Shown piece by piece: positions 11,908-46,905 of a stretch of 52,725 nucleotides of DNA. Source of the DNA: Saccoglossus kowalevskii (taxonomy: Eukaryota; Hemichordata; Enteropneusta; Harrimaniidae). The position numbers and the translations under genes are program-made. A model generated the notes under the pieces. It did no database searches. It had not been told where the DNA came from and saw only the letters and a list, made by a program, of their open reading frames with translations. Numbering within the stretch: position 1 is the stretch's first letter; each line of letters begins with the position of its first letter. The stretch covers positions 3,119-55,843 of the forward strand of contig NW_003138331.1 in assembly GCF_000003605.2 (NCBI RefSeq), written 5' to 3'.

Positions 11908-14900
11908 ATGTGTAAACACTTAGTGATCTACATTTTCGTTGCATCATGTGTTGGTCACTGCATGTCAATGAAACTTGGACATAAGGTAAGTAAATCTAAA
12001 CTGTTCTTAGTTCTTATGGAAATCGTGAGCAATTCAATCTTTGCAGGTGTATTTGTGGGTTTAACAGTCATCGGAGTCTTGCAAATGCTTCCTCAGATCT
12101 GCTTTCTCTGTAATTTCCTTTCGCAGAATTGCATGTCAATGTCCCGGTTTTTTGGATACCGAATCGCTACTATTGCCTTCACAGATAGTGTTTAGGAAAC
12201 AACTTGAAAAATCAGTAAAGGCAGTAAAAGAAAAAAAAAATAGAAACCCTTTGGTATACATGAAGTCATGTCTGGTATTTCTAAACTTCAGTACATTCCT
12301 CACCACATATATGTGTATTGTGTATTGCCGTCAATTCAACGTACAGCCATGTTCGTTGCCAAAGCAAATAAAAAAACTAATAGGATGGATGTTGTATTTC
12401 CCCAGGACCACGTGTGCCAGTTCGGTGTCCACGAGTTTGCAATGTATATTTCGGGGACTATTCCAGGTCTGATTTTGGTTTTGAACATCGATGAGAGAAT
12501 GTCCGTATCATGTATAACTCATTAAGTTTTACAAAGCATTATACCGTTTTTGTCATTTAGTTTACAAACAATTTAAATTGAATAAGGCAACTTCTCCGGG
12601 GCTGATTAACATTACAACTTTGCCACCAATATATGAATCAGGGTGGTGTTATTACTCATTTAGAACATAAACTATACTTATTCTCATATATCAAATCATT
12701 AAAGGGGAGCAGAGGTTAGGTTTTGACGCTCTGTACATGGAATTTGAGATCTAAAAATGAATTCTGTCTACAAAAACATATTGTATGTGCTGCAAAATGC
12801 TAAGTTTATCGAAATTCCAAAGGAAAAATCATGTTGTTGGTTGCGAGAAATCGGCAGAAGAACTAACCTGAAAGTGCAGCGTACGTACGGCGTTCTAGCT
12901 ATAGTAAACAGTTAATGAATAAATATTGTACGGGTTGAAACTAAAGTAGAAATACGTTAACATCACTTGAACTACAGCACTCATTTCGCACAGCTTCCCA
13001 CTTTTTAATCGACCGCGTATCGCTTATCCGACGGCACGATATTTTCCGACCGGAAAACGACCGCCTTTCTATTGTTTTCGTCCTTTCGCTGGCTCATTGA
13101 AAACACAGACCGGTCCCCTAGCACTGATCACTGGTACAGGAGTGGTCGAAATGGTGATATTAGTGATACAGTTTGAGGATACAACGGGTACTAACTATTA
13201 TTAAATTCTAAACAATTCTTTAAATCTATACCACTTTGTATCGTTCGCGAACGCAGCTTCATCTGAGTCCAATATCGAATAAATGAGTTTGCGTAATTAT
13301 TATGAAAGCGATATATTACAATGTTGACATTTTTAGAGCCGGTACAATATTGTAAACAAATTTGTGTAATTAGAAAAACAGCACACTAAGTAAACGATTT
13401 TGAAATATACAAGTGTGCGTAATTACAGCACCGCCAGAAATAAAAACAATTTTACAAGATCGACGCTCGGAGCATCAAAGAAAATGATTGCTAAGGTAAC
13501 GCGCCAGTTCAGTGCGTGACTTGGGGTTAAACTTTGGTAAATATACACTAGATGTCAGCATCGCCGCGCAATAAGTTTTGCAATGCAGTACTTGAAGTTC
13601 AATAGCGCCCAAAATGACGCCGTTGATCACTCAGTCTTCTGCCAACTATTATAGACTAGTTTTTAAGCTTTTCGTTAATTTTCAAGTCCTTTATGTTATT
13701 TCATGGTCTTTACAATAAGTGTGAATTGCTGTGCTAGGCTATTATACACAATCACGGTCAGCCGACGTCATGAAATCTAAGCATAGAACGTAGGCGACCT
13801 GCGGCCGTTTGATTTCCTACTCTCCCTTGAAGCGATTGGTAAGAATGGTTGTTAATATATTACCCGATGCTCTACGATTTTTTTCATTTCAAGGTAAAAA
13901 ATAACAAATATATATAATGAATACTATTTGTTTAATTATTTGGGTTTTCAGCCGTCAAATTACTGACTATGATCGCATGAATTACGGTCAATGTTTGTTC
14001 TGTCTCGGCTTGAATGACAGACGTCGACACTGACGCATCCTAAACTCAGTATGGAGAGATCGACATTTTAAAGAAATTATTAACGGACCACGGTCAATAG
14101 GCATTTCAAACAATCGAAATTATTATCAGAAGACTACAAACATTAATTATACAAACACGTCGTGAAGATTCAACAATCAGAAAAGGAAACCTAGAAATTA
14201 CACCGATGTAATCTGACAATCATACCGTAATTGTGTTTTAATATATTTTGTGCGCAGTAAGTATCGTCAGAATATTATTTAAAAAAATATTATTCCATCC
14301 CAATCAAATCTAGGTCAAAGGGTCAGATTGCGTGCACATAATTATAGATAATTAAATCATAGATCATAAATCTCAAATTCCATGCACTGAGTGACAAAAA
14401 CCAGACCACTGTTTCCCTTTAATATGTTTCAATTGTGGTTTAAAATATTAGCACAGTGAGGCATGCGCACACATAAATCTTCATGTATATCTCAATTAAA
14501 TGAATATACAGTAATGATTTAAACAATGGCTTTTATTGTTAATATATTGTCATTCAACTCATCATAGAATATGGTACTACTTGTGATATTCTTTGCACAC
14601 CCATCACCCAATTCAATGATCACATCAATATTACATGAACAAAAGTGATATATAGCGTCATAACTTAATTGATTCATGGTTTAATTTTGATTATAGATGA
14701 ATAAATTAGGTCATTTGCAATCAGTCCTAAATATTTTATTAACACTATTTTAAAATGGCGACGCTGTTGAAACACGTGACCAACTATGTTAATGATGACG
14801 TCAGAGTATTTAATGATAACAATTCACTTATGTTACAGGAGATCCATGGCGTGACTTCACGATTCGGTAAGTTTATTTTTGCAAATGCTTTCTCCCTGAA

Positions 14901-17540
14901 AAGCCTGTACACGAGACATGTCATTTATATTAGGTATAAGTCCATTCATTTATAATATCCACAAAAATCTACTGCTAACATGTACCATAATATTTCACGT
15001 TCGAATTAGAACCGAAAATGTCCGGAGGCCCTGTATTCGACACACTTGNNNNNNNNNNNNNNNNNNNNNNNNNNNNNNNNNNNNNNNNNNNNNNNNNNNN
15101 NNNNNNNNNNNNNNNNNNNNNNNNNNNNNNNNNNNNNNNNNNNNNNNNNNNNNNNNNNNNNNNNNNNNNNNNNNNNNNNNNNNNNNNNNNNNNNNNNNNN
15201 NNNNNNNNNNNNNNNNNNNNNNNNNNNNNNNNNNNNNNNNNNNNNNNNNNNNNNNNNNNNNNNNNNNNNNNNNNNNNNNNNNNNNNNNNNNNNNNNNNNN
15301 NNNNNNNNNNNNNNNNNNNNNNNNNNNNNNNNNNNNNNNNNNNNNNNNNNNNNNNNNNNNNNNNNNNNNNNNNNNNNNNNNNNNNNNNNNNNNNNNNNNN
15401 NNNNNNNNNNNNNNNNNNNNNNNNNNNNNNNNNNNNNNNNNNNNNNNNNNNATCGTAAATGCAGAATCCCTGAGTACCCCATACACAAGTGTTGTTTACA
15501 TTGACAGCGTCTACGTAATCATAGATAAAGAAGAAGGGGGTGTTTTCAGAGTCGATCTTCTACAACAAAAATATCTTTCTGTGAGTATAATTACTATTGT
15601 GAAAATTACCAAATTGACATTATTTTGTTCTTTTGTTGTCGTTGCACTATTTTTGTCGCTGTGTTTTGTTGCGAACTATGTCATTCACATGAGCAAATCA
15701 TTTTGACATTCTATGTTTCACATGATTATTTTATTTGTTTGAATTAACATTATTTGTCTAAAGCGGATGTGCAAACGATTTTTCACACATAAAACCAAAA
15801 TATAAATGACAAATATGTATTGGTGTTATGACATAAATATGTATACCTAAAATACCACGTGTTGTTGTCTAGTTACACCCAACATATAACTTAATTAATT
15901 ATAAATGATTTGAATATTAAATCAAGTTTAAAGCGGACAGTCAACAAAATGACTATTCAGCGAAATGCACCTCATGCCGGTTGACATCATTATTCATGCA
16001 AAAATCAATATATCATAAATTTAAGAAAAAATGTATAGTTCTTTTTGTGTGTGGCCATACTAATTATGCATGGGCTGCATAACATTATGAAACACATTTG
16101 ATACAATAGGAAACCAATTAGATGAGTTTACTAATTACAGAATGTATGCGATTCATTAGGGTAAACTTATGTCGTATAAATTGAGCATATTTGCTAAATA
16201 TGCCAAATTGGTCTACGGCGTTTAATCTTTATTTCAATAAGCGTAATTTGTCTTTTCGAAATAATTCTACTTCGTGGCTAATTGTTTGTTAATATAAGTT
16301 AATTTATCTTATATATTCTAATATGATAGATTTAAAATAAAAAAAAATATTACGAGCTTACGTCAAAATATGTCGTGACCTAGCTAGTAATAAATTGTGT
16401 TATTTTACTATAAGAGTTAAAGCGGGGAGTCGTCACCTGCGCATGCGTCAGATGGCCATAGCGTGTAACTCTTTACAAACAAGCGTCTACCATGAGCCTT
16501 TGCGTTTTAGCGTGTGTTGTTATCGTTGATTGGAACTATTCATACTATTCAAATGTACACATGACCATTTATATTGTGTTTAGATGTATGGTTTAAAAGC
16601 TGAAACATTTATTTATTATTTAGAAAAATAAAATGCATATAAAACATAACGGTATAATTTTAGAAATCGCTAAGGATGTCCCATTTCAACACAGAAACAT
16701 TCACAAGTTACATTCACAATAGATGAATATTCCGCCGAATGGGATCTACATTTACCGCATGCAACAACAAAAAGCGATTTGCGGGCAAAACAAAATCAAT
16801 TGTGATATGATTGTGTATGATCTATACAACGCGAATGAACAATTCGACAATATTACCATTATAAGTGTATATATTTTTAGCCAAATTTAGTTAATCAGAT
16901 GTCAAACAGATTATAATTGTGACGGACGAGTGATGAGTATGATGATCCTGGACCGTATTGTGTACACGAATTGATATATTTAAATATTAAATGGCAACAC
17001 TTAACAAACTGTACTGTATGTATCTTTAAATATAAAAATGAAATAAATAAAAGTGAACAATAACTAACAATGCACATATATTAATTATGTAGATTTTTTA
17101 TGATTTATTATATAGATCAACAACGAGAAATCAATCCACATTGTAGACATAGTAGACAAATGGGAAGACAAGGTTAATGGTATTTCAATCATGGAACGCG
17201 ACAATAAAATTGTGTTGAACAAAGCCGGTGAATTCAGCTTGAGTTGGGATGGAATTGGACGCGTCAATATTAAACTTGATGACACTTACAAAGGTCACGT
17301 ATGTGGGCTGCTGGGAAATGCAGATGACAATCCAGATGATGATCTTATGGAGTTAACAGCAGATGGTTTGAAGTTGACAACGAATACAGACGAATTCGCA
17401 AAAAGCTGGGAAATACCAGATAGGTGAGTTGGTAGATTCGAGAATATTTACATATCGGGGAAAACAAATATCTGCACATCAGCGTATGATTATCTAACTG
17501 CGCCGTTTTCTTTTTCTTTTTCAGTTGTCCATCTAAATAA
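11908..17540 (+). CDS. Gene 1: secreted single VWD-domain protein (assembly gap inside)
   Basis: Coding exons are 11908-11985, 14839-14866, 15010-15580 (with the N gap), 17116-17423 and 17525-17540. The first exon encodes a signal peptide ending in ...CMSMKLGHK. The 28-nt micro-exon encodes EIHGVTSRF. Exon 3 opens the VWD domain (SGGPVFDTL before the gap, then IVNAESLSTPYTSVVYIDS). Exon 4 carries its second half (SWDGIGRV, VCGLLGNADDNPDDD, FAKSWEI), and the last exon gives the end SCPSK. If exon 3 matched gene 2 the protein would have about 229 residues. VWD domains are extracellular, disulfide-rich, calcium-binding folds. This copy departs from its paralogues: GDP is GGP and the Cys before WDG is Ser. 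The ATG follows a TACCAG acceptor by one base. Intron 1 (2.85 kb) is the longest in the family. It is probably functional, but a decaying copy cannot be excluded. Confidence 0.82.
12268..12525 (+). other. Unassigned open frame in intron 1 of gene 1
   Basis: This 85-residue frame starts MSGISKLQYIPHHIYVYC and contains FPQDHVCQFGVHEFAMY. It lies inside intron 1 of gene 1 on the same strand. I recognise no family. A poly-A-like run (12229-12240) precedes it. It could be a pseudogene fragment, a transposon relic or chance. Confidence 0.2.
15049..15451. other. Assembly gap (403 N)
   Basis: The run of undetermined bases falls inside coding exon 3 of gene 1. By comparison with gene 2, about 92 coding bases should be missing, much less than the 403 N shown, so the gap length is either arbitrary or includes inserted sequence. 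Confidence 0.99.
16417..16530 (+). mobile_element. TTAA-AGCGGG MITE, family B, partial copy
   Basis: TTAA at 16417-16420 is followed by AGCGGGGAGTCGTCACCTGC and about 100 bases matching the complete copy at 22496-22663. The right inverted repeat is not visible, so the copy is truncated or decayed. It lies in intron 3 of gene 1. A second possible left end (TTAA then AGCGGACAGTC) lies at 15928 in the same intron. Confidence 0.75.
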
Positions 17541-17793
17541 TATACAAAACGACCGATACATGTGATAGTTGTTACTGACAATAACGTTGGGATACTAGCC
17601 AAGACGATGTTCTACTGGTTTGTTGGCGGCATTTTTGCATTGCTTATTTATTTCACTGCTCGTGCATTGTATAGTTATGGAACAGACGTTATTATCGTCC
17701 GCACTCCTCGTTATAAATGCACATGTCTATTAAGGTTTGCTATATGCATGTATAGTAGCGATTATCATTATAGGTGTTTCTATATCAATGATC

Positions 17794-17799
17794 AATAAA
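17794..17799 (+). promoter_or_regulatory. Polyadenylation signal of gene 1
   Basis: An AATAAA hexamer about 255 bases after the gene 1 stop is a reasonable 3' UTR end. It was chosen by position only. Confidence 0.5.
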
Positions 17800-19197
17800 A
17801 ATGAATTTGGGTGATACAAAATGACCATAGCTTCGTTTACTTTAGGTCAGACTAAAATCCAACGCTCAGATACATCGTAAATATGTACGCTGCGAGCTTA
17901 TGTACAAACTTCGCGAATGTCTTCCATACGCAATAAAAGAACGACGGCTTGAGTGTCTAGTTTTAAAATATTCAAATTGGATTGAGTTTTGTTACAGATG
18001 TTGACAATTCTTTAATCTAATTAACCGCCTTATCCGTGTCTTGTTTTGCTATACTTCCACTGATATTCGTTTAGATGCAAGACGTCAAATAAGGTTACTA
18101 TATTAGATATTTATATTTATTCCGTTTCATAAATATGTGATGCATCAAACAAATACAATGTCGTGTATAATGACATAGGGGTGCTCATTTCGCCGGAATA
18201 TTCACATTTTTAATATTGCAACTTTTTATTGCATAACAGTGAGAGGTAGTAATGAAACTAAAATTGTATTATCACCGAAAATGGCGATGCTGTTTCAAAA
18301 GTATGTCACGCCTGTAAATGCACGATTGCGATTGAATGAGATGTAGTTTTAGTCTATGCAATCCGGTATAAAATGATCGATATACCTCAGTTTTCTTTGT
18401 TTGGAAGTAGGCCCAAGGCCTGAATAACACGCATCAACTTTAAAGCTTAAACGCTTCTGTCAACTGAAATCGACAAAACTATTATTTTACGCTACCAACG
18501 TATCACGCGAGGAAGAACATCAGAAGTACACAAACAAGAAATTGATTGTCGTCTCCATTACCTTGTGAATCCCAAGCCTTTGTCGATTCCAAAAACGCAA
18601 CCGAGTGTGCAGCGCTAATGGGAGTCTGTTTTTTTAATTGAAATTATGTTGAACCTCGCAACGAGAAAATACAATTTTCGTCTCCGCTCAATATAATAGT
18701 CAACTTACCAGAGTTTATAAATGGTGAATTGTCAATGCTCACTGTAGTTTGAAAATATCAATATAATTTAAAAGGTTCTTTGGATAATCTGTACTGAAAC
18801 CTTATTTTCATATTTGGTTAAAGGCTTTTCCGGCACTAAAGCAAAACATGGTACGGTATATCAAACGCCATGTCGGCGAATTTTGGTTATGTTCATATAA
18901 AAAACTGTACACTTATTATGCTAAATGCACTGCAACTTAAAGCTGGCGTTGTCAAACTATGAATGCTCATGAAAATGCTGATAACAATTGGAATTTGTTA
19001 AAACGCATAGCCATATTGTATAGTATAGCACTACTCAACATCACCATCATCACAATCATCATACTGTCTTGTGACCGACTGCAGGGTGAATGAATATCCA
19101 TTAAAATTATGCCACTCGTCAGTCTGCCACTACATCCAGCTCATTCAGATGTCTAGAATCCCCAGCAGCTTTTTGGTTTTCTTTTTCTCGCAATAAC
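17800..19197. other. Intergenic, no gene recognised
   Basis: AT-rich sequence with no sustained open frame, paired splice sites or RNA gene that I can support. Confidence 0.6.
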
Positions 19198-19330
19198 TTA
19201 AAGGGCGGCAGTCGTCGCGTCGCGTCCTGTTCGACATGGGACTCATAGCGACGTATACAACGCATGTAAAATACATTGTTTGTTTAAATAATTTTCAAAC
19301 ACGCGCTGCGCGACGACCACCGCGCTTTAA
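19198..19330. mobile_element. Small TTAA-type MITE, family B-like
   Basis: TTAA, then AGGGCGGCAGTCGTCGCG at the left; at the right CGCGACGACCACCGCGCT followed by TTAA. The arms are imperfect inverted repeats of about 20 bp, and TTAA flanks both sides. At 133 bp with no coding capacity, it shares terminal AG-GCGG-AGTCGTC with the family B copies but is internally different. Confidence 0.8.
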
Positions 19331-20619: not shown

Positions 20620-20698
20620 GTTTTAATAAATGCAGTACTAGTTCTATATCTCTGAGATGCTTTGACTAATTATATTCACATTTTGCATATTCATTATA

Positions 20699-21690
20699 AC
20701 GGGATGATCAATAAGTTCTCGACCCCACAACGAAACAAGGGGCGGAACTCCTATTCTGGGGTATGTCTACCTGTAGTAATTCAAATTTGGGTATTCAATA
20801 AATAGCACGTGCACGTGGTGCCCATTTAAAATCAGCAGGTGAGACGAAAATCACAAAATGGACCAGACAGAAGTTAGTGCTGTGATCAAGTATCTCTATC
20901 AAATACGATTGGCTACTAAAGAAATCGAAGAAGACATTGTCACGACAGGGGAGAACTCCCCTACTTATTTCACTGTAAAGAAGTGGGTTGCTAACTTTAA
21001 ACGAAGCCATGAGAGCATGAAAGATGACCCAAGGTCTGGATGTCCTACAATCAGGTTGAGGCCATCTGACATATCGGGCATTCACCAGCCATCGATTGTG
21101 GCGCAGTTCAAAATATTTTGTCCGACAACTTGGTGATGAGCCAGCTGTCTACAAGGTGGGTGCCCCGAATGTTGACTCCACATCAGAAGTTGAACTGGTT
21201 GGAAGTTTCATGGACGCTTTTGGCTAGTTGCCGGTCAAATCCTGACAACTTCCTCAAGAGATATGTAACCCAAGATGAGACATGGGTTCACCACTTTGAT
21301 CCATAATCAAAAGAGCAGAGGAAACAATATACACACAAGGGTTCCCAGGCGCCCAAGTAAAAGGGGGGGGATCGTCCACACAACACATATGGCAGTGGCA
21401 GCAGCAGCCGAATGTATATTTGAACCCTTGTCTAGCCTACTCACCTGACCTGGCACCGTCGGCCTTCTACCTGTTTCCTAAACTAAAGTCCCACTTGCGT
21501 GGTCACTGTTTTGAGACTGATGACGTCATCCAATCTGTTGAGCCATATCTAAAATCCAAGATAAAACCTTCTTCCAGCAGGGAATAGGAAAACTGGAACA
21601 TCGATGGACTATATTGAAAATAGTGTAAGAAAAATCTTTTTTTTTTAACGTTTTATGAGGAAGGCCGATATCTTATTGATCGCCCCTCGT
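20699..21690 (+). mobile_element. Mariner (DD34D) DNA transposon, defective
   Basis: Terminal inverted repeats share GATCAATAAG near both ends: the left begins ACGGGATGATCAATAAG, and the right, reverse-complemented, begins ACGAGGGGCGATCAATAAG. A TA dinucleotide adjoins each end, the usual mariner target. At about 992 bp it is shorter than a typical 1.3 kb mariner because of internal deletions. It is inserted in a local tandem repeat. The ends may be off by one or two bases. Confidence 0.9.
20858..21650 (+). pseudogene. Mariner transposase remnant
   Basis: The ATG at 20858 opens an N-terminal helix-turn-helix region (MDQTEVSAVIKYLYQI ... FTVKKWVANFKRS ... DDPRSG). The frame breaks near 21100 and resumes as DNLVMSQLSTRWVPRMLTPHQ, reaching the first catalytic Asp in TQDETWVHHFDP, with a stop at 21304-21306. 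The block with the second catalytic Asp is largely deleted. The third-Asp motif reads YSPDLAPSAFYLF, where intact mariners have PSD, so the Asp is replaced by Ala. A C-terminal trace FFQQGIGKLEHRW follows in another frame. The enzyme is clearly dead. Confidence 0.9.
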
Positions 21691-28289: not shown

Positions 28290-28473
28290 CCATTGTTTCA
28301 TCACAAAACTGACACAGGTATTGTAACAGCTTGAGACCTGTTGGATTGTCACTAATTTGCTAGAATTTATTCTATATTCAGCCAGTCAGTCATTCTATGC
28401 GTTCCAGAGTCTGTGGCGACACATCGAATTACATCATCTCTGTACAAGTCATTGAATTGCGCAGTTGCTTAAG
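28290..28473 (+). promoter_or_regulatory. Promoter and untranslated first exon of gene 2
   Basis: About 180 bases align closely with 43360-43563 upstream of gene 3. Shared parts include CACAAAAC, GACACAGGTATTG, ATTGTCACTAATTTG, CCAGAGT and CACATCGAA. The block ends in a GGTACT splice donor (intron from 28474) that pairs with the acceptor one base before the gene 2 ATG. A TATATTC box at about 28370 fits a start near 28395. Such conservation beside freely diverging neighbours suggests a functional promoter and 5' UTR exon. Confidence 0.65.
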
Positions 28474-29505: not shown

Positions 29506-30847
29506 ATGAACAGATACTTACTTTGTTACATGCTTGTTGCAGCAACTACAAGAGCTGCTATATCAATGAAGCTCGGTCAACAGGTAAACTACATGTTTTT
29601 TTTTAGTTTATTTGTGAGTGGACATTGAGCGAGGAAAAATACACTTCAAATAGAGAAAACATGTTCCAAACATTGTACCATTGTTTTTCGTACATGCTTG
29701 TAATTCATATTAATATACATTCTTCCCCATTCACGGGTCACAATTGACCAATGGCGATGGCTTTTTTTGTATTGATAATGTTCTACACACTTGGTGGCCT
29801 GAAACATTCGAATTAGTACCGTTTATTGGGAGTACGTTAAATCACACCTACAGTCACTACACAAATGATTTAGACCGATATAACAGGAAACACTATTTTC
29901 ACGTATCCGCATTCTGCAACTTCAACAATGATATGATTATATGATCTTGAACATGTGGATTCAAAAAGCAACAATCCGTAATAATATTATACTATTTGAA
30001 AATAGTGTAGCCGTAACTCAAAATGCTCATGAATAAGTTCCAATATTTGTTGATTATTAGAGAATCCAACTCATGAAAATGCAAAGTTTTGGTCTTGTAA
30101 CACGTAGTATATTACTATAAATAATAGTGGTAGTAATACTCATACATTATTACAATGAACTAAAATATACTGCCGTCTAACTTATTTAATTCTTAACAGG
30201 AGTTTCATGACGTTGGTGTGCGAAAAAGTAAGTTATAATAAAAATATTTTCAAATAAACCAAACTTGTTCTCGTTTTTTTGAAAAAAAATAAAACGCAAT
30301 TCAAATGCCGGTATTAATACAAACACTTATTAACGTATTATTCTTATCAGGCGGAACGGGTTCGGGAGACCCTCAGTTTCACACCGTTGATGGTAAGCAG
30401 TACTCGTTTGACGGTAATTGCTCGTACGTGTTGCTGAGAGAGTGTCAGGACCCATTGGAACAACCTCGTTTCTCCGTGAATATTGTGAACTCCAGAACAT
30501 TGAAGACCCCGTACAAATATGTCGTCTACATTGACAGCGTCTACGTGATAATAAATTTAGAAGGAGGAGGTGTCTTCAGAGTTGACCTACTACAAAACAA
30601 ATACTTGTCAGTAAGTACAAAGCGATCGAATACATCAGAAAGTTAAAGTTAGGACATGTGTCCTTTTGCCTTTATGTAACCTTTATTAAATTACATTTTA
30701 ATTTATTTGATCGAATACCGTCAGTGAATATGTGATGTTTAATCCACTACCCCAATAATGTGTTACAGCAAATGCTTCGGTGTGTTGTACACTTGGGTTG
30801 TGCACTTGGATCAGCACATTCTTTCTAAGCTTTTTTTCACAAATCAT

Positions 30848-30900
<53 letters not shown>

Positions 30901-32272
30901 TTATATGTTTACTGTTCAGTGGTAACAACACTTTCTCTGTCCGTCGTGTATGAACATTTTTATTATCATCTATCTACACACACTTAATATAAATATGATA
31001 ATCTTTATTCCGCAGATCAACAACAATACATCCATCCACATTGTCGATATCGTAGATAAATGGGAAGATAAAACAAATGGCATTAGCATAAAAGAAAAGG
31101 ACAATAAAATTGTTGTAACAAAAAAGAACGAATTCTGCGTGTGCTGGGATGGAATTGGACGTGTCGATGTAAAGGTAGACGACAGTTTCCATGGCAAAGT
31201 ATGCGGTCTCATGGGAACTGCCAACAATGATCCGGATGATGATTTCAAGATGCTCACAACAGAAGGTTTAAAATTAGTAGAGGATGTGAAAGAGTTTGCA
31301 AATAGCTGGCAAATCAAAGATAGGTGAGTGATGCTTATAACAAAACGAGAAAATAATAGTTTAATAGTATGTGTATTAAGATATAATTGTGTTAGCACTA
31401 GAATTATAACATGATTGTAATGATACATTGTGTGACAAAACACATTTTAAAATTCGATTTTAACATGTGACAGGTAAGGTAAAATTATAATATCGCCCAG
31501 AGTGCCAGTTCATTCGTTTCGAGAATCTACATTCGGCTTTGAATCTTTACAACACTTGTTTTACAAGTACATTTTTTGAGGATACACTCAGACCGTTCAT
31601 GATATTGTATAAAATTTATGAAAACTAAATGATATTGTGATTTGAATATATATATTCTACATATATATAGTGGAACATATCATATATATATATATATATG
31701 TTCCACTATATTTATGTAGAATTTGTTAAACCTGGGCGAGATTGTTTGATTTATGTAAAACCAGCATTACATGAATAATATGAAATTAATCAAGCTTCCA
31801 AGGTCTGGTTATTACACGTCTACTGGCCGGAATTTGTTTACAGTGTAGCGTTATATACCAAGCGAAAGACTCATTTCGCAATCGGGGCTCTAACAAATTT
31901 GCTACGTTTACATAACATAAATCTCCGACGAGTATGATGGTTGTACCTTACCAAACAATGCCGTATCGTTTTAATATTAATTAGTTTGGATCCTAATTCC
32001 TCTATCAGCATAAATACCCATATATTTTGCTATAATATCAAGCCTTGGATACTGAAAAAAAGCATTTACTTTTGTAACATTTTCCTTCTGTTACAAGGGC
32101 TTTCGACACGAAAAACCAAAAGTCCAAAATCTATAAATATTTTTCAAGCTATCATTACTAGTAAATGTGGTTGCTTTGTATTCCATTAAATGCCGAGCAC
32201 TTCGTATCATATTGCCATCATAGTTTTAATATTTTCTTTTTTTTTCTTTTTTTTAGTTGCAAGATCAAATAA
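29506..32272 (+). CDS. Gene 2: secreted single VWD-domain protein
   Basis: Coding exons are 29506-29583, 30200-30227, 30351-30610, 31016-31323 and 32257-32272, giving 229 residues. Residues 1 to about 20 form a signal peptide (MNRYLLCYMLVAATTRAAIS). A short linker (MKLGQQEFHDVGVRKSGTGS) leads to the VWD domain: GDPQFHTVDG, then NCSYVLLREC, WDGIGRVDVKV, VCGLMGTANNDPDDDF (the calcium-loop region), and FANSWQI, closed by a last-exon Cys (SCKIK). There are no C8, TIL or other domains, unlike mucins or von Willebrand factor. The usual CGLCG reads CGLMG. EFCVCWDG carries two Cys, one more than gene 3. The ATG follows a GCAG acceptor by one base. A role in extracellular matrix, secretion or defence is possible, but none can be read from the sequence. 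Confidence 0.92.
30851..30910. repeat. (AT)n microsatellite in intron 3 of gene 2
   Basis: About 19 AT repeats followed by interrupted TTATATATAT copies. Confidence 0.95.
31656..31722. repeat. Near-perfect hairpin in intron 4 of gene 2
   Basis: The left arm 31656-31681 and right arm 31697-31722 are inverted repeats matching at 25 of 26 positions, with core AGTGGAACATAT, separated by a 15-base AT loop. It could be a tiny foldback element or a small-RNA-like hairpin. Confidence 0.88.
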
Positions 32273-36288: not shown

Positions 36289-36289
36289 C

Positions 36290-36322
<33 letters not shown>

Positions 36323-36323
36323 G
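36289..36323. repeat. (CTGT)n microsatellite
   Basis: About nine CTGT repeats lie just beyond the 3' end of the minus-strand LINE. Confidence 0.95.
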
Positions 36324-36339
36324 AAATAAAAGTGCAACA

Positions 36340-39300
36340 GTGTTTGTTTGTTTTTTTGTTTTTTTATTTAAACAATATTTTTTATTTCGTTTCAATAATA
36401 TAGACATACAGCACAAAATATTACATTGCATAGAAGTACAAGGAAGTAAAATTAAGAGGAAGAAAATAAGGAGAAGAAAAAAAAGTGATCTGGTATAACA
36501 TCTAAATTTACCCATTATATAGCCAATTAGTTAATGGTTCCCATTTCTGATAATGGATAAGCTCTTTGTTTTTGTTTATTGCGATTTGTAGTTCAATATT
36601 TCTATTTTCCCTGTTCCAACTTTTATATGCGTATTTTGTTGGATGAACCTTTTGAACCCTACAGGTATATACATATTATTTAAATAATAAAATAAAATGA
36701 TTTAATAATATATTTTCCGGTTCACATAGACCTATAATAATATTTTTGACATTACAAACAAAATTGGCAATAAGTGTGCAATCACTTTGCAACAGTCTCC
36801 AAAGTCTCTTTACAACAATACATTTAACAAATAAGTGTTCTAATGTGTCTTCTTCTCTTTCACAAAAAGAACAGTGGAGGGACTTGATTATTTTCCATTT
36901 ATACAGTTTTACATTAGTTGTTAAAACTCTGTGTAGAATTTTGTATTGGAATGCCTTAAGATTTGTGGAGATTGTTGTCTTGAAAGGTAGTTTGAAAATT
37001 ACATTTTGTTTCATTCCATACAAATATTGGAAGGCTATGGCGATATTTGGCTCTTTAATAATGTTTTCACACAAAGATTTATACATCGTTTTGCTCGTCA
37101 GTGTATTAATTGCAACGTACTTAGAATTCCATTTGACTTTATTTTGAAAATCACACCACTCATGGGTATTAGCATGAATGTTCTCTCTCCAGTCATCTGG
37201 TATTTCAGAGATTAGGTCTTGTATAGTATGGTATTCTGTCAAAGTGATACCTTTTCCCTTCCAATATTGCCAGTGATGAAAGTTTCCATAGAAATCGATT
37301 AGGTCTATTATTCTTAATACTTTTTTTCTTTCCAAACTTTTCAGATAGACTGTACGATAGCCGTTTTTTAATAATCTATTGTTCCATAGTATTTGTTTAT
37401 CAATTTCAGATGTTGTTTTTGGAGTGTATGATGTCAGAGATGAACATTCTCGGATAATATCATAATAAAAGGGTGGGATTTGATTTTCAAATTGTGATTC
37501 ATCATAGTTGCAAAAAAACATAGTCCCCAAACTTTTTCAATAGTCCCTTCAATATATCCTTCCACCCGGCTTGGCTATCAGAAACAAACCGTTTCACCCA
37601 TATAATCTGTTGTGCTTAAAAAAAGAGTCCACCCCAATCATATGTAATCCACCCCTTTCAATATCTGAAATAAGGATGTTTCTTTTAATTGTATCCTTTC
37701 CATTCCAAATAAAATTGTAAATAATACTATTGATTTTTTTTATAATTGATTTTGGCACTGATACGCCGGAGGTTTTAAGGATCTGTATTTTAACAATTAT
37801 TGAGAGTTTTCTTCTAGACCACAATGAGCATACTGACTTCAGACTGTTAATTTTCTCTGAAAAATTTTCTTCATAGACAGATGCATAGGTAAAAAAAAAT
37901 CCCAAAATTGTTATTCCATTCGACCATTTAATATTTATTTTCTCTTTTGGCCTGTGAACACACGTCAACAAAAGTGCCTCAGTTTTATCCTGATTTAGAT
38001 TTAATCCTGAACATTTTCCAAATTTGTCAACTGTATTGAAGAGCGGTATCATTGAGGTGGGCTTAATTGTACAGGTTATGTCGTCTGCATACATTACTAA
38101 CTTAATACTTTTTTTAACGGTACCAATACCATTTATAGTTAGATTATGTAATTTCACTACTATTATAAACAGATAAGGGGATAAGGGGTCTCCCTGCCGC
38201 ACACCTTCTACAATGGGAAAAATAACCAGTTGACCTTCCATGATTCATCACGCAGGAAGAGATGCTACTGTAAAACGTGTTTACCCAATTTATAAAGGAG
38301 TTACCAAAATTAAATACCTCCAATGTTTTTATCAGAAATTTGTGATCAACAGAATCAAAAGCTTTTTTGAAGTCCAGTGATATTAACACGCCATGTGTAT
38401 TTTGATGTCTAGTTAGCCACATTACATCAAAAACTGTGCGAATTGCATCACATATAAATCTGTCCTTCACAAACGCACATTGGTCTGGGTGAATGATAGT
38501 TGGCAGGATGGCATAAATGCGTTTAGAGGCTATCTTGACATCGGTATTAATGAGGGAGAGTAGTCTATAGTTTTCAAGGAATGTTTTATATTTGCCTTTT
38601 TTAGCAATCAGGATTATGACCCTGTTAACTGTCCCTTTCTATGAGAGTAATTTAAGCTATTGAGTAAATGTGAACTAATAATGTTCCAAAATGTTTGATG
38701 AAATTCAGCTGACAAGCCATCATTACCCGGTGTTTTATCTTTTGGTAATATGTTTAAGGCTCTAAAACATTCATTCAAAGTTAGTGCTCCCTCATAAGAC
38801 CACTTTGCTTACTCACTTAGGCAAGAAATGTTAGTATTATATAAAAATTGTTGGACGCCCAGTTCTGATTCTATCAAATGATCTTACACATTTCAATAGA
38901 ACTCTTTAATATAGGACATGATGTGATCAGTATTTGTTTCCTCAGTATTGTTAATATGTAAGCGCTTCACAGTTGTTTTAGTTTTGTTTGATCTCTCCAA
39001 ATGCTGAAAAAAATTATTACTTTTTTCTTCCAGCTCGTAATGATTACATCTAGATTGTATAATGGAACCCTGTACTTTATCATTCCAGATTTTCTCTATT
39101 TTCAATTTTGTCTCATGATATTGCTCTGTTTTAAATTTATTATCAAGAATATTTTCCAAGTCCTCAATTAACGATTCCAGTTAATGAAGTTTTGTGTTTT
39201 TTTCTTGAGCTTTTGAATTTGAATAGGTCATTGTAAAACGTCTTATTTTATACTTTAGATACTCCAAGGAAATCATTGGTTCATTGTCTAAAAGCTGAGG

Positions 39301-39380
39301 CTCCCACTCCTTGATTTGATTTGATAGCTTTAGGACATAATTTCTACCTTTACACAAAGAATTATTAAATTTCCAGTGTT
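36340..39380 (-). mobile_element. 5'-truncated LINE, Tx1/L1-type
   Basis: On the minus strand the sequence reads from the linker before reverse transcriptase (HWKFNNSL at about 39377) through the RT and C-terminal domain to an A-rich 3' tail region near 36340. The endonuclease and ORF1 are absent, so about half of a full element is missing, as is common for incompletely reverse-transcribed LINE copies. The exact 3' end is uncertain. Several frameshifts and stops show an old insertion. Confidence 0.85.
36676..39380 (-). pseudogene. LINE ORF2 remnant (reverse transcriptase)
   Basis: In order on the minus strand: the linker with ELEEKSNNFFQHLERSNKT (38893-39159); fingers and palm with GVLISLDFKKAFDSVDHKFL (38144-38470); VEGVRQGDPLSPYLF and the catalytic YADD at 38091-38080 (frame 37594-38241); and a 284-residue thumb/C-terminal part (36676-37530) ending in a CCHC-type motif, CSFCEREEDTLEHLFVKC. 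These motifs are typical of the L1/Tx1 superfamily. At least three frame changes separate the parts, so no active enzyme is made. The catalytic YADD itself is intact. Confidence 0.88.
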
Positions 39381-42300
39381 AAAAACGAGGCAAATGCAGT
39401 ATTTGGGCAGTGACAATGACACAATTAGTAAAAGCCTATTTTTTCTACTAAAATGATATACAAAAATCTATTAATTATTAACTTGAGATTCATAAATAAT
39501 TCTATGAAGTGTGGTATCACTTATTATGGATTGGTGTGTCGATTTTTTTTGTGTTATTGCACTTGTGAAATTACTTATACAATTTGTGTGAACAAATCTA
39601 TGACTGGGTGTGTGGCCGTATTATTAATAAAGTATTATAAAAATATTACTAAAATAACTTAATATTTAACATAAATCTATATTGCTCCCAGGAAACGTGT
39701 TCACAACAATATATGTGTAAAATGATAGCCGCGATTAACTACAGCTGTTGGTAAAAAACGAGTTGTGATGAGAGGGTTGTGTAAATGTATTTTGCGTGTG
39801 GGCACTATTGTTGTCGTTGCAGTGCTATAACTGTGCTATAAATAATCAATTTTGGCTAATCCTTTTAATGATTAAACCCTTATGGTGATTAATATTCATA
39901 ATCACAAAAATACATGAGAGATTTGCAATACAAATGAAGAAGAAAGACAACACAACGTCAGTCCGTAATTATAAAGTAATACACAACGAGCGATAATTGT
40001 GTATAAATGTGTGTACACGTGGAAGGTGCATGTTCTCACATTCAACTCTTACATTGTCCATGAAAGATGTTATCAGTGGTTAACACTATAGTATGTTGGT
40101 CAACCCTGCATTTAATGGAAAATCAACATATAAATATACATATAAATGTGCAAAGCGTGGCACATACACATTAGCGGAGGACGTTGTGGCGTTCAAGTAA
40201 TAATGAACAACAACAACAACAGAAACATCAGAAAGAAACACTTTGCTCACTGTATTAAATACCCAAACATTTTATTGCGTCATCTCATTGGCACAATCGC
40301 TTATGTGTGACAAAAAAATACGTCTATAAAATCAGAAGTTGTGTGTATAAATGAATGCTTAAATAATTACCGGTTTTCCCGCTCCTTGAACAATATGTTA
40401 TACTAGAACCATTTTATAATACACAGAACATGCCTAATTCACATCAGTTATATTACTGGCGGTTTGCCTTCTTTACTTCACATTACACCAAGTGTAAGAA
40501 ATAAAATTATTCTGTCATTTATCCTGTCATGCACCTGTAGAGGGCGTTGTTTTTGTTGCTACCAACAAATGTGACACAAATATGCTACGAGTGTGTTTAA
40601 GTGTATATGTGTGTCTGCATGTATAGATATATACATATGTATGGCATATATGGTATCCACCAATACGTTGTATATGTTTATTTATGTATACAATGGAACT
40701 GCACCATCAGTGTTACCCACGATATCCCAAGCGACCGGGGATAACCTGTGCAGACTTTAAGATAAATAGTCAATTTTACCCAGGTGATTAAGAATATTGA
40801 TATTCAAATACTGTGTTGAGGTTAACATCTCTGCTGACTGATCCTGATGTTAAATCGATTTCAGTGTAAAAAAATAATGTAAGTATGCAAATTTAGTCAT
40901 AATAACAATACGGAGAGACTAAGCCACCATAAGAATAAGCAACTACATGTGCGAATAATCAAGATACTTTTTTGTTATTTTATAATATATTTACCTTGAT
41001 TAATCTAAAATGCTATGTGAGGAATCAGAGAGGAAACAGAAAAAAGTCCATATCTTCAAGTTAACATACGTTCAAGCACGCAAGAAAATGCATAATAAAC
41101 TTTGGCAAACCAATCCCCCTAATTGTACTGTGATTGACTTGCGGTCAATGAAACCTGTTTTTTTCCTCTTATGTAACAAATTAATGGCGCTATAATCAAA
41201 TTTAGGATTCGACCGATTTTCTGTATACGATTGCATATATGGTCTACCTTCAAAATCAATCATTGGTCTGATCCACAGAACTCACGTACACATGTTCTTC
41301 TCAGAGCCTCAAGTAATTTAAAATGGTTCGGGAATAGTAAACTATTAAATAGTAAGACTAAAACAAATTGCATGAGCAACATAGTTACTACACGATATAA
41401 AAAATTATAGATGCCTTGTAAAATAATTATATTTGTGTCAATACGCCTTAGTCTCGGGTAAGCATCGAAATGTCGTTAAGAGCAACAAAGTTACGCAACT
41501 TGTTTTCACCTTCGAAATATTTCAATCTCTGTCGACATATGCGTTTACTGTTTCAATTACCACGGTTATATAGGCCAGCAGAACAGTGACCGCAATGGCG
41601 GTAAATAAAACACTGTTAGGTGGAGAAGTCATGTGATTCCATTGATATCAACGAGACGTCGTGGCCGGTTGTTTATAGGATATGTTGTCGCTGCTATTTA
41701 GTGGAAATTCTCATCCAACTAAAGATAATAATTATATATTAGTTGTATACATGTGTATGTTGTACTAGTAGATAGTTTTAAATATGTTGTTTCAAAAAAA
41801 ACTGCCATGTGAATATAAAACTTGTACATATATAATCTGTAGATATTTATATAATCTGAGCGTCAAAAATATTTATTTTTTGTATGCATGTCACGTGATT
41901 CTCATATTATCGTCAAGTCAGTATTTATCATATCGCATGTCCAACCTGACTGTAAGCGGGTGTTTTAAGGACGATTGCTAACATTAAAATTCGTAAATAA
42001 AAATATGTGGTCAACGAAACTAAGTTTGCAGAAAACGAATTCGGAAATAGGTTTTAAGTTTGCAATCGGAGACATTCCATTGTATCTCAAACTTTTGTTT
42101 GGCGACCTACGCTGTAAAAAAATATTATAAGATGTGACAGGCTGAGTGTTTTGAATACTAGTGTAAGTTATCCACACCACAGTACGTTTATATGATATCC
42201 TATGATACATGTTTAGCAAATATTCTCTTAAAAACATATCGTTGTTTCTCCGTAATAACTTTAAATGTCAATGACTTGCGTGTATGTGTAACATCGCACA

Positions 42301-43359
42301 ATAATTATTGAATATTTTACTGTGATACATGTTTTAATGGTAGCGACTCACCTTGATTGACCATTCACCAGTCTCCATAGAATCAGTGAGAATATACAAG
42401 GTAGGTGTATTTGCGTATTTAATTTAAGTTTAGTGATTGTGACGTAGCGAATTTTAGGGGATAAAACTTATAATTATTAAATCAGTAAAGGTCTTTTGAG
42501 TAGCATAGGAAAGGTATGTATTGCATACATCACTACATGCAGCAAGGTGGAGTTGTCTGTTAGTCTGATTTGATCAAAAAATTATTGGTCGAGAAACATA
42601 TACTTCCCATTGTAAATTTTAATGCAAGGGCTAGGCCACCGTGTTTTGTCATTACCGCAAGGAAGTGTATGCGTTTTCAGTGAAATTAAAACAAACCTTT
42701 ATTATGATTTTCTATTTAGTTATGAACAATTTTATTCCAACTGCAGGGAACATAGATTGCTGCACTACACGTTCACATTGGTTGTATTTGCCATTATGAA
42801 ATGTTTAAATACGCTTGGCTGACAAGACAAAAACACTGAAGACTTTGTTTCTCGCTACACTATACTAGTCTCCCCCTTTGAAGTAAGAGTGTGTTGAACG
42901 CATACGCCAAATAAACAAGTGTCGCAGATGGTAAGCGTGTACTGAATATGCATGCAGTGCGTCATTGAAGAAAACGTCCTTTGAAAAAATAAATAATAAT
43001 CAATTATCTCATGGTTTACAGTCTATGTATGTAACAATTTGAATTCTGTTAAATAAAATAATAACATGTGCAGCACATTTCACAGAGCAACATTTCAAGG
43101 CATGAGATATTTTTTCTGCGTCATCTGCTGAAATTTAGATCGTCGATTTTTTTTTGGCAAAAGTGCCGTATGAGACTAGACATTTTTGTGTAATTTTTGG
43201 TTTGTCAGTGCCGTGGTTCCAAACCACTGAAATAATTATATGTCTCAATAACGCATAATGTTTTGTCATGAAAATAATATGAACAATAAACGATTCTGTG
43301 ATGTGGAAGTCTTGTGCAGTCGTGTGCTGTCACCTTTTATTCCGAAGCTCCACCGCCTG
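39381..43359. other. Intergenic upstream of gene 3
   Basis: AT-rich, with only short frames lacking domains. I recognise no gene, RNA gene or transposon end here. Confidence 0.55.
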
Positions 43360-43563
43360 GTATAATTGTTTCTTCACAAAACAGACACAGGTATTGGCAC
43401 AGCTTGAAAACGGGTGAATTGTCACTAATTTGTTGGGCACCACGAACCATTTTATATCCACTCATTCACTCATTCTCTCCTATCCAGAGTTTGGAGTTGC
43501 ACATCGAAATACATTGTATCCTTACAATTGAAATCACCGTTTAGATCGACGCAGCTCATTGAG
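43360..43563 (+). promoter_or_regulatory. Promoter and untranslated first exon of gene 3
   Basis: This block is homologous to 28290-28473 over its whole length. It includes a TTTTATATCC box near 43450, a CCAGAGT segment and a terminal GGTACT donor (intron from 43564, 466 bases to the acceptor before the ATG). With a start about 30 bases after the box, the untranslated exon would be roughly 80 nt. The start site is inferred. Confidence 0.65.
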
Positions 43564-44029
43564 GTACTGTAGTAATCTAGCTTATTTAATGAATGGATTG
43601 AACCACAGAAGTGTTGCATATTTTGGAGATACATCTATATTTTTACCATGTTTTGTTTTCTAGTTACCAATCACAAACTTATACGAACAACCGCGATAGC
43701 TTCAATATTCTAGATTTCTTTCTTTTATCTATAGTAGCAGCAATTAATACTTTTTAATCAGTTACTGAGATTTTAGAATTTTTTTAAAATTATACACTGA
43801 GTACACGAGTAGAGGCCAAATATATGATTCAAATATACGTGACTTACAAAACGAAAATTTGGGCAGATATTTTACTAAATTGAGTATAAATCTTCTGTTA
43901 AAATTCAGATTGAAATTTTAGGAAAACTGTCCGGTGATAACATATCAGAGTTATGTTCATATGTTCTGCATGCAGACAAGTCAATGGTAAAAATAATGTC
44001 ATGTCCTCTCATTATTATGTCATTTCAGA

Positions 44030-46905
44030 ATGTACAGATTCGTGCTTGTTTACACGTTGGTGGCAGCAACAGCCAGTCACGTTATGTCAATGAAGCTTGG
44101 ACAACCGGTAAACAACATTATAGGCAAAGGCAACTAAATATTATTGTCCGCAAACAAAACGTAAAAACAACTTTCCACACAAAAACCACATCTACTAAAA
44201 TATTATTAGATATAACATTGGTGAATAGTTAAGCACTATTTCATGGGTAGATCTGTTTCCTGTAAATCATTACACGCATGCGTGTACAGTCCATTTTGTT
44301 GCACCTTATTTTTCCCAGCAAGTTACAGCATGTTGTTGTATATGTTGTTATATATTGTGTTGTGTCACATTACTGGAAATACACCATTAACTTCATGTAA
44401 AAGTAGTTTGTTATTATATTACGGACAATTTGTTTCTCACATCATTTTTCAACATAATCACGCGAATTATATTTATAGATGTTAAATGTGGGTCCGCGGC
44501 AACAAACAAACACACATTATCGTGAATAATGATTTATACAGCAATAGTGTATAAAATGACAGAGCATTAGGAACTCTTAACACGTTTAAAATATTGTAAC
44601 AATCAACGTGTATTTTCCTTCATCAGAACCATCATAGCATAGGTGTGCGAGCAGGTATGTTACTTTTTGTTTATTTAAACAATCCATATACATAACGCAG
44701 TTAGTAATTAGTAATTTTGTGATTCGATCTCGTTATCCTAAGGAACATTTGAAGTACCAATATATGTGCTTTGTCTAAACATTGTATCATTTAAATCATG
44801 CATGTGAAGGTGGTTGGGGAGATCCCGAGTTTGACACTATTGATGGCCGAATGTACGTATTCAGCGGCAATTGCTCGTACGTGTTGCTGAGAGAGTGTCA
44901 CGACCCATTAGGACCACCACGTTTCTCTGTGAATATTGTGAATGCCAGAACATTGAATACACCGTACACAGCTGCCGTTTACATTGACACCGTCTACGTG
45001 CTAATAGATTTAGAAGGAGGAAGTGTCTTCAGAGTTGATCTACTACAAGGAAAATATCTTTCAGTAAGTAATGAAGAGAAGTAATAAGCGATTGTAAAGT
45101 AGATTGTATGAATCGCAGCATTCAATAAGCTTTATTTGTAGAAACCACCGTGGCACAGTTCGCTAAATGTTTATTGAACACGTCATAATGATAATACTAC
45201 ACGTGTTTCATAGAGTTATTAAAGAAGAGAAATAGATACAGCATAAACATATTCGAGGATATGGGAAAAAAACTATATTTATAAATATATATGAATTTAC
45301 AACCACGATTATTCTTCTGATTATTTTGACTGTATTTTAACGCCCTCAATGGTCACTAAAATGTGCGCTCGACCGTTTATTTAATTTCTGGTAGCCGTGT
45401 ACGGACGATCGATTGTTTGGACGGCTGGTTGATTGCTCGATTTACTGGCTGGATGATTGCTTGGTTATTCGGATGTTTGGAGAAGTTGTGTGTAATACAG
45501 TAAATTTAAAAGATAATTGTGAACGCATTGGGTTCACTTTTAAAACTAACTACAAGAATTCCGGCCATCAGCTGAACGGAAGAGTTGCCAGTCAATCGTC
45601 TTCCGCATCCAGCATACTCAAAAAGGAAAACTATACAATGAGGAATCAGCGTATTAGATAAATTGTTTACCAATTGACTACTGTTCAGAAATATAGGTTT
45701 ACCCCTACTGCTTTTGTCATGATAGAATAAATTTAAGGTCTGTTCTTATTTCGTGTTGAAATCGTTTATTATGTGTTCTGATAAAAATTTGAACTCAGTT
45801 TAATGAAATATTTTATAAATTACTAGAAAATGTATGCTGTTTATTTGTGAGTTATAATGTATGTTATGAAATCCTTCATTCCTGTTAGTAAAGTCTATGC
45901 CAGAATAACAGATTATAATATTAAATTGATATTGAGATATTGTGAAAGGAACACATCGCCAAATAAATGTAGCTTAGTGTTTTAGTTTGTTTTTTGTTTG
46001 TTTGTTTGTTTGTTTGTTTTGTTTGTTTGTTTATTTATAAACATAAACTGGTAATTTATACAAATGACTTTTTTTATTGGATTAGTTTTCGATCACAGTA
46101 GTCTCTAACTTTTAATCTTCGATAAAAAAAATATTTGTGGTAGTGTCACTGTTGTGTATATTCGGGTACATTCTAATTCACCAGGGCTATATTTTGTCAT
46201 TGTTGATGAGGCATTTATGAAATTTTGTCAAGAATGTTTGTCAGTAAAACAGTTTTCTCTTCATTGTGGAGGTGTTGCGTATATGCCCAGTAGTAATCAC
46301 GTTGACCTGCCGTTTTGACCGTTTCTGTGCGTTCTGCACTTTCACTTCTCATGGGAGTCAGAACTGATTGTATTGTCATATTAATCAGCATATTACAAAG
46401 AGACTTGTATTATTAACTTGTAGATTAACAACCAGACATCAATCCATATCGTGGATATAGTGGATAAATGGGAAGATGTGGAAAATGGCATTACAATAAG
46501 GCAATTCAATTATAAAATACTGGTTACAAAACGTGACGAATTTAGTGTGTGTTGGGATGGTAAGGGACGTGTCGATGTAAAGGTTAACGACAATTTTAAC
46601 GGCGAAGTATGCGGTCTGCTTGGAAATGCCAATGATAACCCGGATGATGATTTACAGGAGCTCACAAGTGAAGGATTACAATTAGTTGAGAATGTAAATG
46701 ATTTTGCAATGAGCTGGCAAATAAAAGACAGGTGAGTATTGCAAAGTAATAATTTGGGCTGTCATAACATGATAAAGAGCGTCGCTCTAAATTCTCGCAA
46801 ATTAACTAATGTTTAGTTGCATGTTGCAACTAATGAATCCATTGAACACTCTGTCATACTACTAAATTGTAATTCTTTTCTTATTTCAGTTGCAGGATCG
46901 AATAA
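44030..46905 (+). CDS. Gene 3: secreted single VWD-domain protein
   Basis: Coding exons are 44030-44107, 44627-44654, 44810-45063, 46424-46731 and 46890-46905, giving 227 residues. The signal peptide is MYRFVLVYTLVAATASHVMS, followed by MKLGQPNHHSIGVRAGGW. The VWD domain runs from GDPEFDTIDG through NCSYVLLREC, VCWDGKGRVDVKV, VCGLLGNANDNPDDDL and FAMSWQI, closing with Cys in SCRIE. The calcium-loop pattern GNANDNPDDD is the best preserved of the three. Exon 3 is two codons shorter than in gene 2; otherwise exon sizes and phases are the same. Gene 3 is closest to gene 2 by eye, especially in exon 3. The ATG follows a TTTCAG acceptor by one base. Its function is unknown beyond being an extracellular VWD protein. 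Confidence 0.92.
45982..46033. repeat. (GTTT)n microsatellite in intron 3 of gene 3
   Basis: About twelve GTTT repeats with small interruptions. Confidence 0.93.

What the first reader, a model, noticed from the sequence alone, without database searches (positions are those of the whole stretch)
11908..46905. Tandem array of stand-alone secreted VWD proteins with an identical five-exon layout
Three same-strand genes share exon sizes 78/28/254-260/308/16 and intron phases 0,1,0,2, including a 28-nt micro-exon and a last exon coding only the closing Cys and three residues. VWD domains usually occur with C8 and TIL modules in mucins or von Willebrand factor; here the domain stands alone behind a signal peptide. 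I know of no named family with this architecture, and the tandem expansion suggests a lineage-specific secreted set.
Basis: partly seen in the sequence, partly recalled or inferred. Interest (0 to 1): 0.75.

Follow-up and report, generated by a model that had tools for sequence, protein, structure and literature searches.

The report
Family of single-domain secreted VWD genes
Three neighbouring animal genes each seem to encode a small secreted protein made of one von Willebrand type D domain and little else, and they have many relatives across the same genome, which is unusual because this domain is best known from giant mucus and clotting proteins.

Summary
The three genes are real. Two (29506-32272, 44030-46905) have complete coding models with exons 78/28/260 or 254/308/16 nt, phases 0,1,0,2. 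The first (11908-17540) fits at four exons, but a 403-N gap breaks its exon 3, so that size is unverified. Pfam calls VWD in all three. No C8, TIL or other Pfam domain was found around them, and selection has kept the protein.

The main addition is scale. In the window's own 572-Mb genome, 60 of 70 exon-4 matches (41 contigs) have no C8/TIL within 20 kb on the same strand; pooled searches give 107 such VWD places, against 47 beside C8/TIL. All 25 relatives examined end exon 4 at the same phase-2 donor, and 17 have a candidate last exon of at most 16 nt with the closing Cys. The second Cys of CGLC is Leu/Met in 28 of 28 exon-4 proteins, and its usual partner before GDP was not seen: two disulfides are predicted, without the CXXC motif of polymer-building mucins.

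Most likely they are monomeric, Ca2+-binding extracellular binding proteins in mucus or matrix (inferred). Signal peptide and micro-exon are shown only for the window genes. Expression and species are unknown.

The parts
11908..11985 (+). gene 1 exon 1 (78 nt): signal-peptide-like start, SMKLG near its end
   Evidence: phase-0 donor gtaagt; hydrophobic core
14839..14866 (+). gene 1 exon 2 (28-nt micro-exon)
   Evidence: AG/GT borders, phase 0 to phase 1
15028..15580 (+). gene 1 exon 3, interrupted by a run of N 15049-15451; size not verifiable
17116..17423 (+). gene 1 exon 4 (308 nt), C-terminal half of VWD
17525..17540 (+). gene 1 exon 5 (16 nt): closing Cys, three residues, stop
29506..29583 (+). 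gene 2 exon 1 (78 nt): signal-peptide-like start
30200..30227 (+). gene 2 exon 2 (28-nt micro-exon)
30351..30610 (+). gene 2 exon 3 (260 nt), N-terminal half of VWD
31016..31323 (+). gene 2 exon 4 (308 nt), C-terminal half of VWD
32257..32272 (+). gene 2 exon 5 (16 nt): closing Cys, three residues, stop
   Evidence: 20 of 20 pyrimidines before the acceptor; DNA conserved with gene 3 exon 5
44030..44107 (+). gene 3 exon 1 (78 nt): signal-peptide-like start
44627..44654 (+). gene 3 exon 2 (28-nt micro-exon)
44810..45063 (+). gene 3 exon 3 (254 nt), N-terminal half of VWD
46424..46731 (+). gene 3 exon 4 (308 nt), C-terminal half of VWD
46890..46905 (+). gene 3 exon 5 (16 nt): closing Cys, three residues, stop
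28292..28447 (+). element upstream of gene 2 conserved with 43365-43527 upstream of gene 3; possible 5' UTR exon or promoter (function not tested)
   Evidence: 73% over 163 columns, E 8e-23
43365..43527 (+). element upstream of gene 3 conserved with 28292-28447

Best explanation
A large animal gene family encodes secreted proteins of roughly 205-210 residues that are one VWD domain almost from end to end (shown as gene models for two window genes and most of a third; inferred for the relatives from exons 3-5). The coding sequence is a signal-peptide-like exon, a 28-nt micro-exon, two exons that split the VWD domain, and a tiny last exon whose main content is the Cys that closes the domain's first disulfide. 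Compared with VWF-type VWD, the Cys before GDP and the second Cys of CGLC are both missing, so two disulfides remain and the CXXC motif linked to polymer building is lost. The acidic loop after CGLL (for example NANDNPDDD) resembles the VWD calcium site. Most likely the proteins work as monomeric, Ca2+-stabilised binding modules released into mucus, matrix or body fluid, where each paralogue recognises a partner (a mucin/FCGBP-type glycoprotein, a receptor or a microbial surface), as the RGMB VWD binds Neogenin. Duplication would then have given many binding specificities. Shown: domain, exon layout, absence of C8/TIL, number of relatives, selection. Inferred: secretion, disulfides, monomer state, calcium, binding role (the binding role alone about 0.35).
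For: Pfam VWD in 3 of 3 models and no other family above its cut-off in them. No other Pfam family at E 0.01 in 74 plus-strand ORFs of at least 45 aa around the genes (ORFs holding N left out). TIL (84 matches) and C8 (74 matches) genome-wide, none on scaffold C2960. 60 of 70 exon-4 matches without C8/TIL within 20 kb on the same strand; 107 of 154 pooled VWD clusters likewise. AG|GT phase-2 donor before the closing Cys in 25 of 25 relatives. Ser-Cys-stop exon of at most 16 nt in 17 of 25 relatives and 3 of 3 window genes, against 0.007-0.016 expected per 1.5 kb. Second Cys of CGLC absent in 28 of 28 exon-4 proteins, and no Cys before the DP motif in exon 3 of 18 of 18 loci where the motif was found. 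dN/dS 0.11-0.39. Stand-alone and C8-linked VWD halves separate in the tree, support 89/90, below that tool's mark for strong support.
Against: No transcript or protein evidence. Exons 1 and 2 were not found in the sister genes, although about 1-1.7 kb upstream was examined for the five closest, so signal peptide and micro-exon are shown for the window genes only. 8 of 25 relatives lack a last exon meeting my criterion. The relative L056 ends exon 4 differently and was left out of the 25. One relative (L034) lacks the first VWD Cys and one (L044) the first Cys of CGLC; gene 1's first two cysteines would lie in its gap. For 4 of 25 relatives the contig ends less than 20 kb downstream, so C8/TIL could be hidden. 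An acceptor-like 'cag' sits one base before each start codon, so an upstream exon probably exists and could in principle code. One sister (C514) has a stop inside exon 3. Nothing here tests the binding role.
Confidence: 0.6

Rival explanations
1. The exons are part of a larger modular protein whose other exons were missed.
For: An acceptor-like site directly precedes each ATG, so an upstream exon is likely; exon 3 of gene 1 is broken by a gap.
Against: Exon 1 has a hydrophobic, signal-peptide-like core in all three; a stop codon follows the closing Cys in exon 5 of all three; only VWD among 74 nearby ORFs; no C8/TIL match on the scaffold (51,850 of its 216,140 bases read N).
Confidence: 0.12
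2. They are decaying fragments of FCGBP/mucin-type genes.
For: The genome holds C8/TIL-linked VWD clusters (47 of 154), and one sister copy has a stop inside exon 3.
Against: Open frames, intact splice sites, dN/dS below 0.4 in all nine comparisons, the same exon-4 end in 25 of 25 relatives, and sequence separation from C8-linked domains.
Confidence: 0.03
3. They are ligands or surface coats of another known kind: RGM-like signalling ligands, shell or spicule matrix proteins, adhesives, or luciferase-like enzymes.
For: RGMB uses a VWD outside a D assembly as a ligand (PMC10880436, introduction). A luciferase chain is a weak hit (E 0.14, E 9e-4). The mature proteins of genes 2 and 3 are acidic (31 D+E against 27 and 18 K+R).
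Against: No RGM domain or second VWD found by Pfam and the proteins end three residues after the closing Cys, leaving no hydrophobic tail; nothing positive for mineral, adhesive or enzyme roles.
Confidence: 0.25

Closest known systems
FCGBP (IgGFc-binding protein) VWD domains, including its isolated C-terminal VWD
   Same: Best sequence match among solved chains (E 3.5e-65 for the multi-VWD chain); the first two VWD cysteines and the first Cys of CGLC align
   Different: Human FCGBP is a giant of 12 D assemblies plus one isolated VWD (PMC10880436, introduction); here one VWD is the whole protein, CGLC is CGLL/CGLM and the GDPH His is replaced in genes 2 and 3
Von Willebrand factor and gel-forming mucins (MUC2, MUC5AC, MUC5B)
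   Same: VWD sequence and several Cys positions, including the closing Cys
   Different: No C8 or TIL found nearby and no CXXC, so no polymer-building D assembly
Repulsive guidance molecules (RGMA/B/C)
   Same: VWD outside a D assembly, used as a ligand in RGMB (PMC10880436, introduction)
   Different: No RGM domain found and no hydrophobic C-terminal tail for a GPI anchor (these defining features are recalled); RGM chains were not among the sequence hits
Vitellogenin VWD
   Same: VWD keeping four of eight VWF-type intrachain cysteines and a Ca2+ site (PMC8727950, passages)
   Different: Vitellogenin is a large multi-domain protein; none of its other domains was found here
Cypridinid luciferase
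   Same: Small secreted VWD-based protein (weak 'Luciferase' hit; identity as cypridinid type recalled)
   Different: Recalled to carry two VWD domains; similarity here is marginal

Membership tests
VWD domain proteins (PF00094) | Match to the VWD profile above the curated cut-off | tested here: met
   76.7, 73.4 and 46.1 bits against a cut-off of 22.9
D-assembly proteins (VWF, gel-forming mucins, FCGBP) | VWD followed by C8 and TIL | tested here: not met
   No C8 or TIL match on scaffold C2960 although 74 and 84 exist elsewhere in the genome
D-assembly proteins (VWF, gel-forming mucins, FCGBP) | CGLC (CXXC) motif | tested here: not met
   CGLL or CGLM in window genes; second Cys absent in 28 of 28 exon-4 proteins
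GDPH self-cleaving VWD | GDPH motif | tested here: not met
   Gene 2 GDPQ, gene 3 GDPE, and the known start of gene 1's exon 3 lacks it; 7 of 20 loci with readable exon 3 (gene 2 and 19 relatives) have GDPH
Repulsive guidance molecules | RGM N-terminal domain and C-terminal GPI signal (recalled) | tested here: not met
   Only VWD found by Pfam above cut-off; proteins end three residues after the closing Cys
Secreted proteins | Cleavable N-terminal signal peptide | tested here: inconclusive
   Hydrophobic core in three exon 1s by hydropathy only; no signal-peptide predictor available
Stand-alone VWD family described here | Split VWD with phase-2 donor before the closing Cys, second Cys of CGLC replaced by Leu/Met, no C8/TIL nearby | tested here: met

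The most novel reading that the evidence does not exclude
An animal genome carries an undescribed superfamily of about a hundred single-domain VWD genes that have shed the covalent tie between the first strand and the rest of the domain. In members that keep GDPH, self-cleavage could therefore free the short N-terminal peptide instead of leaving it tethered, making the VWD a cradle that matures and releases a peptide; in the window trio, which lack GDPH, the peptide stays attached.
Probability: 0.1. Interest if true: 0.75.

Novelty: new variant of a known kind. Interest (0 to 1): 0.52.

Why it matters
VWD domains are known mainly as building blocks of polymerising or giant proteins (mucins, VWF, FCGBP). 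A large family in which the domain is nearly the whole secreted protein, with the CXXC cysteine removed, would give simple soluble models for what the VWD surface itself binds, and a natural set for testing how GDPH cleavage and disulfide tethering depend on each other.

Tried and rejected
Gene 2's last exon was not evident by eye; scanning for an acceptor followed by a Cys codon and a near stop gave 32257-32272 (four candidates were listed, this one with the longest pyrimidine tract), later supported by conserved DNA. Upstream exons of sister genes: scans for signal peptides and 28-nt micro-exons in the loci gave nothing convincing. tRNA and Rfam scans of the window were empty. NCBIfam gave nothing for gene 2. 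Molluscan haemocyanin domain in the own genome: no match, but the control genomes also gave none, so it says little about phylum. Papers: ten searches; only one search used six phrasings of 'single/stand-alone VWD' and gave two papers, neither on such a family. Seen: PMC10880436 (abstract, outline, sections 3, 8, 11 and passages), PMC8727950, PMC4224354 and PMC4595640 (passages only); all others as search listings. VWF disulfide pairing (867-996, 889-1031, 898-993, 914-921) is recalled, not from a call. Weak points of my own counts: exon-4 acceptors were listed only if phase 0, so the phase there is partly assumed; the phase-0 exon-3 donor found in 20 of 20 loci used a loose motif that would often match by chance, and I do not lean on it; the CGLC contrast set was chosen by a pattern that requires CGL-x-G and one of the nine loci tried (L008) gave no row; the hit lists for searches were pasted by hand (numbers of rows checked: 150, 70, 84+74, 65); relatives are not independent (five loci, L046, L047, L051-L053, are near-identical).
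Full report
WHAT IS THERE. The window is animal DNA (about 34% GC; 'animal' is inferred from spliced VWD genes and transposon remains), lying at bases 3119-55843 of scaffold C2960 in an unnamed 572-Mb assembly of 4830 contigs. Three plus-strand genes were rebuilt from splice sites. Gene 2 (29506-32272) and gene 3 (44030-46905) have coding exons of 78/28/260/308/16 and 78/28/254/308/16 nt with intron phases 0,1,0,2 and give open proteins of 229 and 227 residues. Gene 1 (11908-17540) matches at exons 1, 2, 4 and 5, but a run of 403 N (15049-15451) breaks exon 3; about 150 nt of it are known, and at face value its length would not keep the frame. Gene 2's last exon was found by scanning and sits behind a 20-of-20 pyrimidine tract.

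IS IT REAL. Pfam finds only VWD above cut-off in the models, E 3e-21, 3e-20 and, for the partial gene 1, 8e-12. Best solved relatives are FCGBP, VWF and the gel-forming mucins. Comparing the territories of genes 2 and 3, the same-strand DNA matches are exons 1, 3, 4 and 5 plus one upstream element (28292-28447 and 43365-43527); the 28-nt exon 2 is below that search's reach, the introns gave no same-strand match, and two short minus-strand matches look incidental. dN/dS (Nei-Gojobori) is 0.11-0.22 for exon 4, 0.14-0.38 for exon 3 (or its known part) and 0.31-0.39 for exon 1; dS runs from 0.4 to saturation, so the duplications are old. Among 74 plus-strand ORFs of at least 45 aa around the three genes (those holding N left out) only VWD was found at E 0.01, in five.

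DOES IT STAND ALONE. TIL has 84 and C8 has 74 matches in the genome; none is on C2960. A search with gene 3's exon 4 gave 70 matches. Sixty have no C8 or TIL within 20 kb on the same strand and lie on 41 contigs; ten do, all within 5 kb. Pooling that search with the VWD-profile search (150 listed of 158 matches; 150 of 425 candidates scored) and an exon-3 search (65 matches; 150 of 179 candidates scored) gives 154 clusters: 107 without and 47 with neighbouring C8/TIL, on 70 and 24 contigs. The pooled 107 is a count of places, not of proven genes: 49 rest on a single match, and it includes other VWD proteins, such as one in a 2676-residue open frame. Contig ends can hide neighbours: in 4 of the 25 relatives below, less than 20 kb remains downstream. 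On C2960 itself only the three copies were found (51,850 of 216,140 bases read N).

HOW CONSISTENT IS THE FAMILY. Of the 30 loci, three are the window genes, one (L055) is C8-linked and one (L056) is divergent with a different exon-4 end; the other 25 were compared. All 25 end exon 4 with AG|GT, a phase-2 donor, at the homologous place just before the closing Cys, with exon lengths 284-305 nt for the acceptor at the homologous position (there I listed only phase-0 acceptors). A last exon of the form Ser-Cys-(0-3 residues)-stop, at most 16 nt, was found within 1.5 kb downstream in 17 of 25 relatives and 3 of 3 window genes. The same criterion gave 0.007 per 1.5 kb in C2960 beyond 56 kb (111,968 bases, both strands) and 0.016 on the antisense strand of the 30 loci. 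Exon 3's best acceptor is phase 1 in 17 of 20 loci where one could be scored (gene 2 and 19 relatives; two further loci start too near the edge). The signal-peptide exon and the 28-nt micro-exon were not recovered for any relative, so the complete five-exon layout is shown only for the window. In a tree of 28 stand-alone and 8 C8-linked exon-4 segments (two of the latter identical) the two sets separate with support 89/90, below the tool's mark for strong support and with one long-branch row (L005) flagged. The closest relatives of the trio (40-53% identity over exon 4) are single matches on C446, C514, C4559, C1748 and C2261.

WHAT THE CHANGES MEAN. In VWF-type VWD (pairing recalled) one disulfide joins the Cys before GDP to the second Cys of CGLC, one joins the Cys of 'GxCxYVL' to the closing Cys, and one joins the next Cys to the first Cys of CGLC. 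In this family the second Cys of CGLC is Leu or Met in 28 of 28 exon-4 proteins, while the first Cys is kept in 27, and no Cys precedes the DP motif in exon 3 of any of the 18 loci where the motif was found. Both partners of one disulfide therefore seem gone, while the other two pairs are kept in genes 2 and 3 and in most relatives (L034 lacks the first Cys, L044 the first Cys of CGLC; gene 1's first two cysteines would lie in the gap). The tiny last exon then has a clear reason: it supplies the closing Cys. Yeshaya et al. [quoted passage not shown] Genes 2 and 3 read GDPQ and GDPE and gene 1's known start lacks GDP, so cleavage is not expected in them; 7 of 20 readable loci keep GDPH. Cysteines just before the 'WDG' motif differ between the three window copies: two in gene 2, one in gene 3, none in gene 1.

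MECHANISM. Best-supported reading: a secreted, monomeric VWD that binds calcium and an extracellular partner, diversified by duplication. Domain, layout, lack of C8/TIL, number of relatives and selection are shown. Secretion rests on hydropathy only. Disulfides, monomer state, calcium and binding role are inferred from the cysteines, the acidic loop and the known use of the RGMB VWD as a ligand.

NOVELTY. Six phrasings of single or stand-alone VWD found two papers, neither describing such a family; the library holds open-licence papers only. VWD outside D assemblies is known (RGM, MUC4, FCGBP C-terminus; PMC10880436), so this is a new variant of a known kind, not a new domain. Lineage restriction was not tested.

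Noticed in passing
window 11907, 29505, 44029: In all three genes a pyrimidine-rich acceptor-like site ending 'cag' lies one base before the start codon: a 5' UTR intron or a spliced-leader trans-splicing site.
   Followed up: partly
window 1-1444: A 50-bp satellite array of about 29 copies at the window's left edge.
   Followed up: no
window 20843-21587: Apparently broken mariner/Tc1-like transposase (weak HTH_48 match, E 0.055, on the first ORF only) between genes 1 and 2.
   Followed up: no
window 36676-38638, minus strand: LINE-type reverse transcriptase split over several ORFs (RVT_1 and zf-RVT matches) between genes 2 and 3.
   Followed up: no
L018-L025 (scaffold C2960, about 142.9-210.4 kb): Seven ORFs on both strands bearing a CAV(V/F)GNS motif that I recall from GT29 sialyltransferases, with further ORFs like their second halves; no family search made.
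   Followed up: no
L031 (C514:27518-27745): A sister copy with a TAA inside exon 3, possibly a pseudogene.
   Followed up: no
genome contigs C2922:763397 and C1622:35134: A TIL match inside a 9175-aa open frame and VWD and C8 matches inside a 1473-aa one, probably giant mucin-like proteins in the same genome.
   Followed up: no
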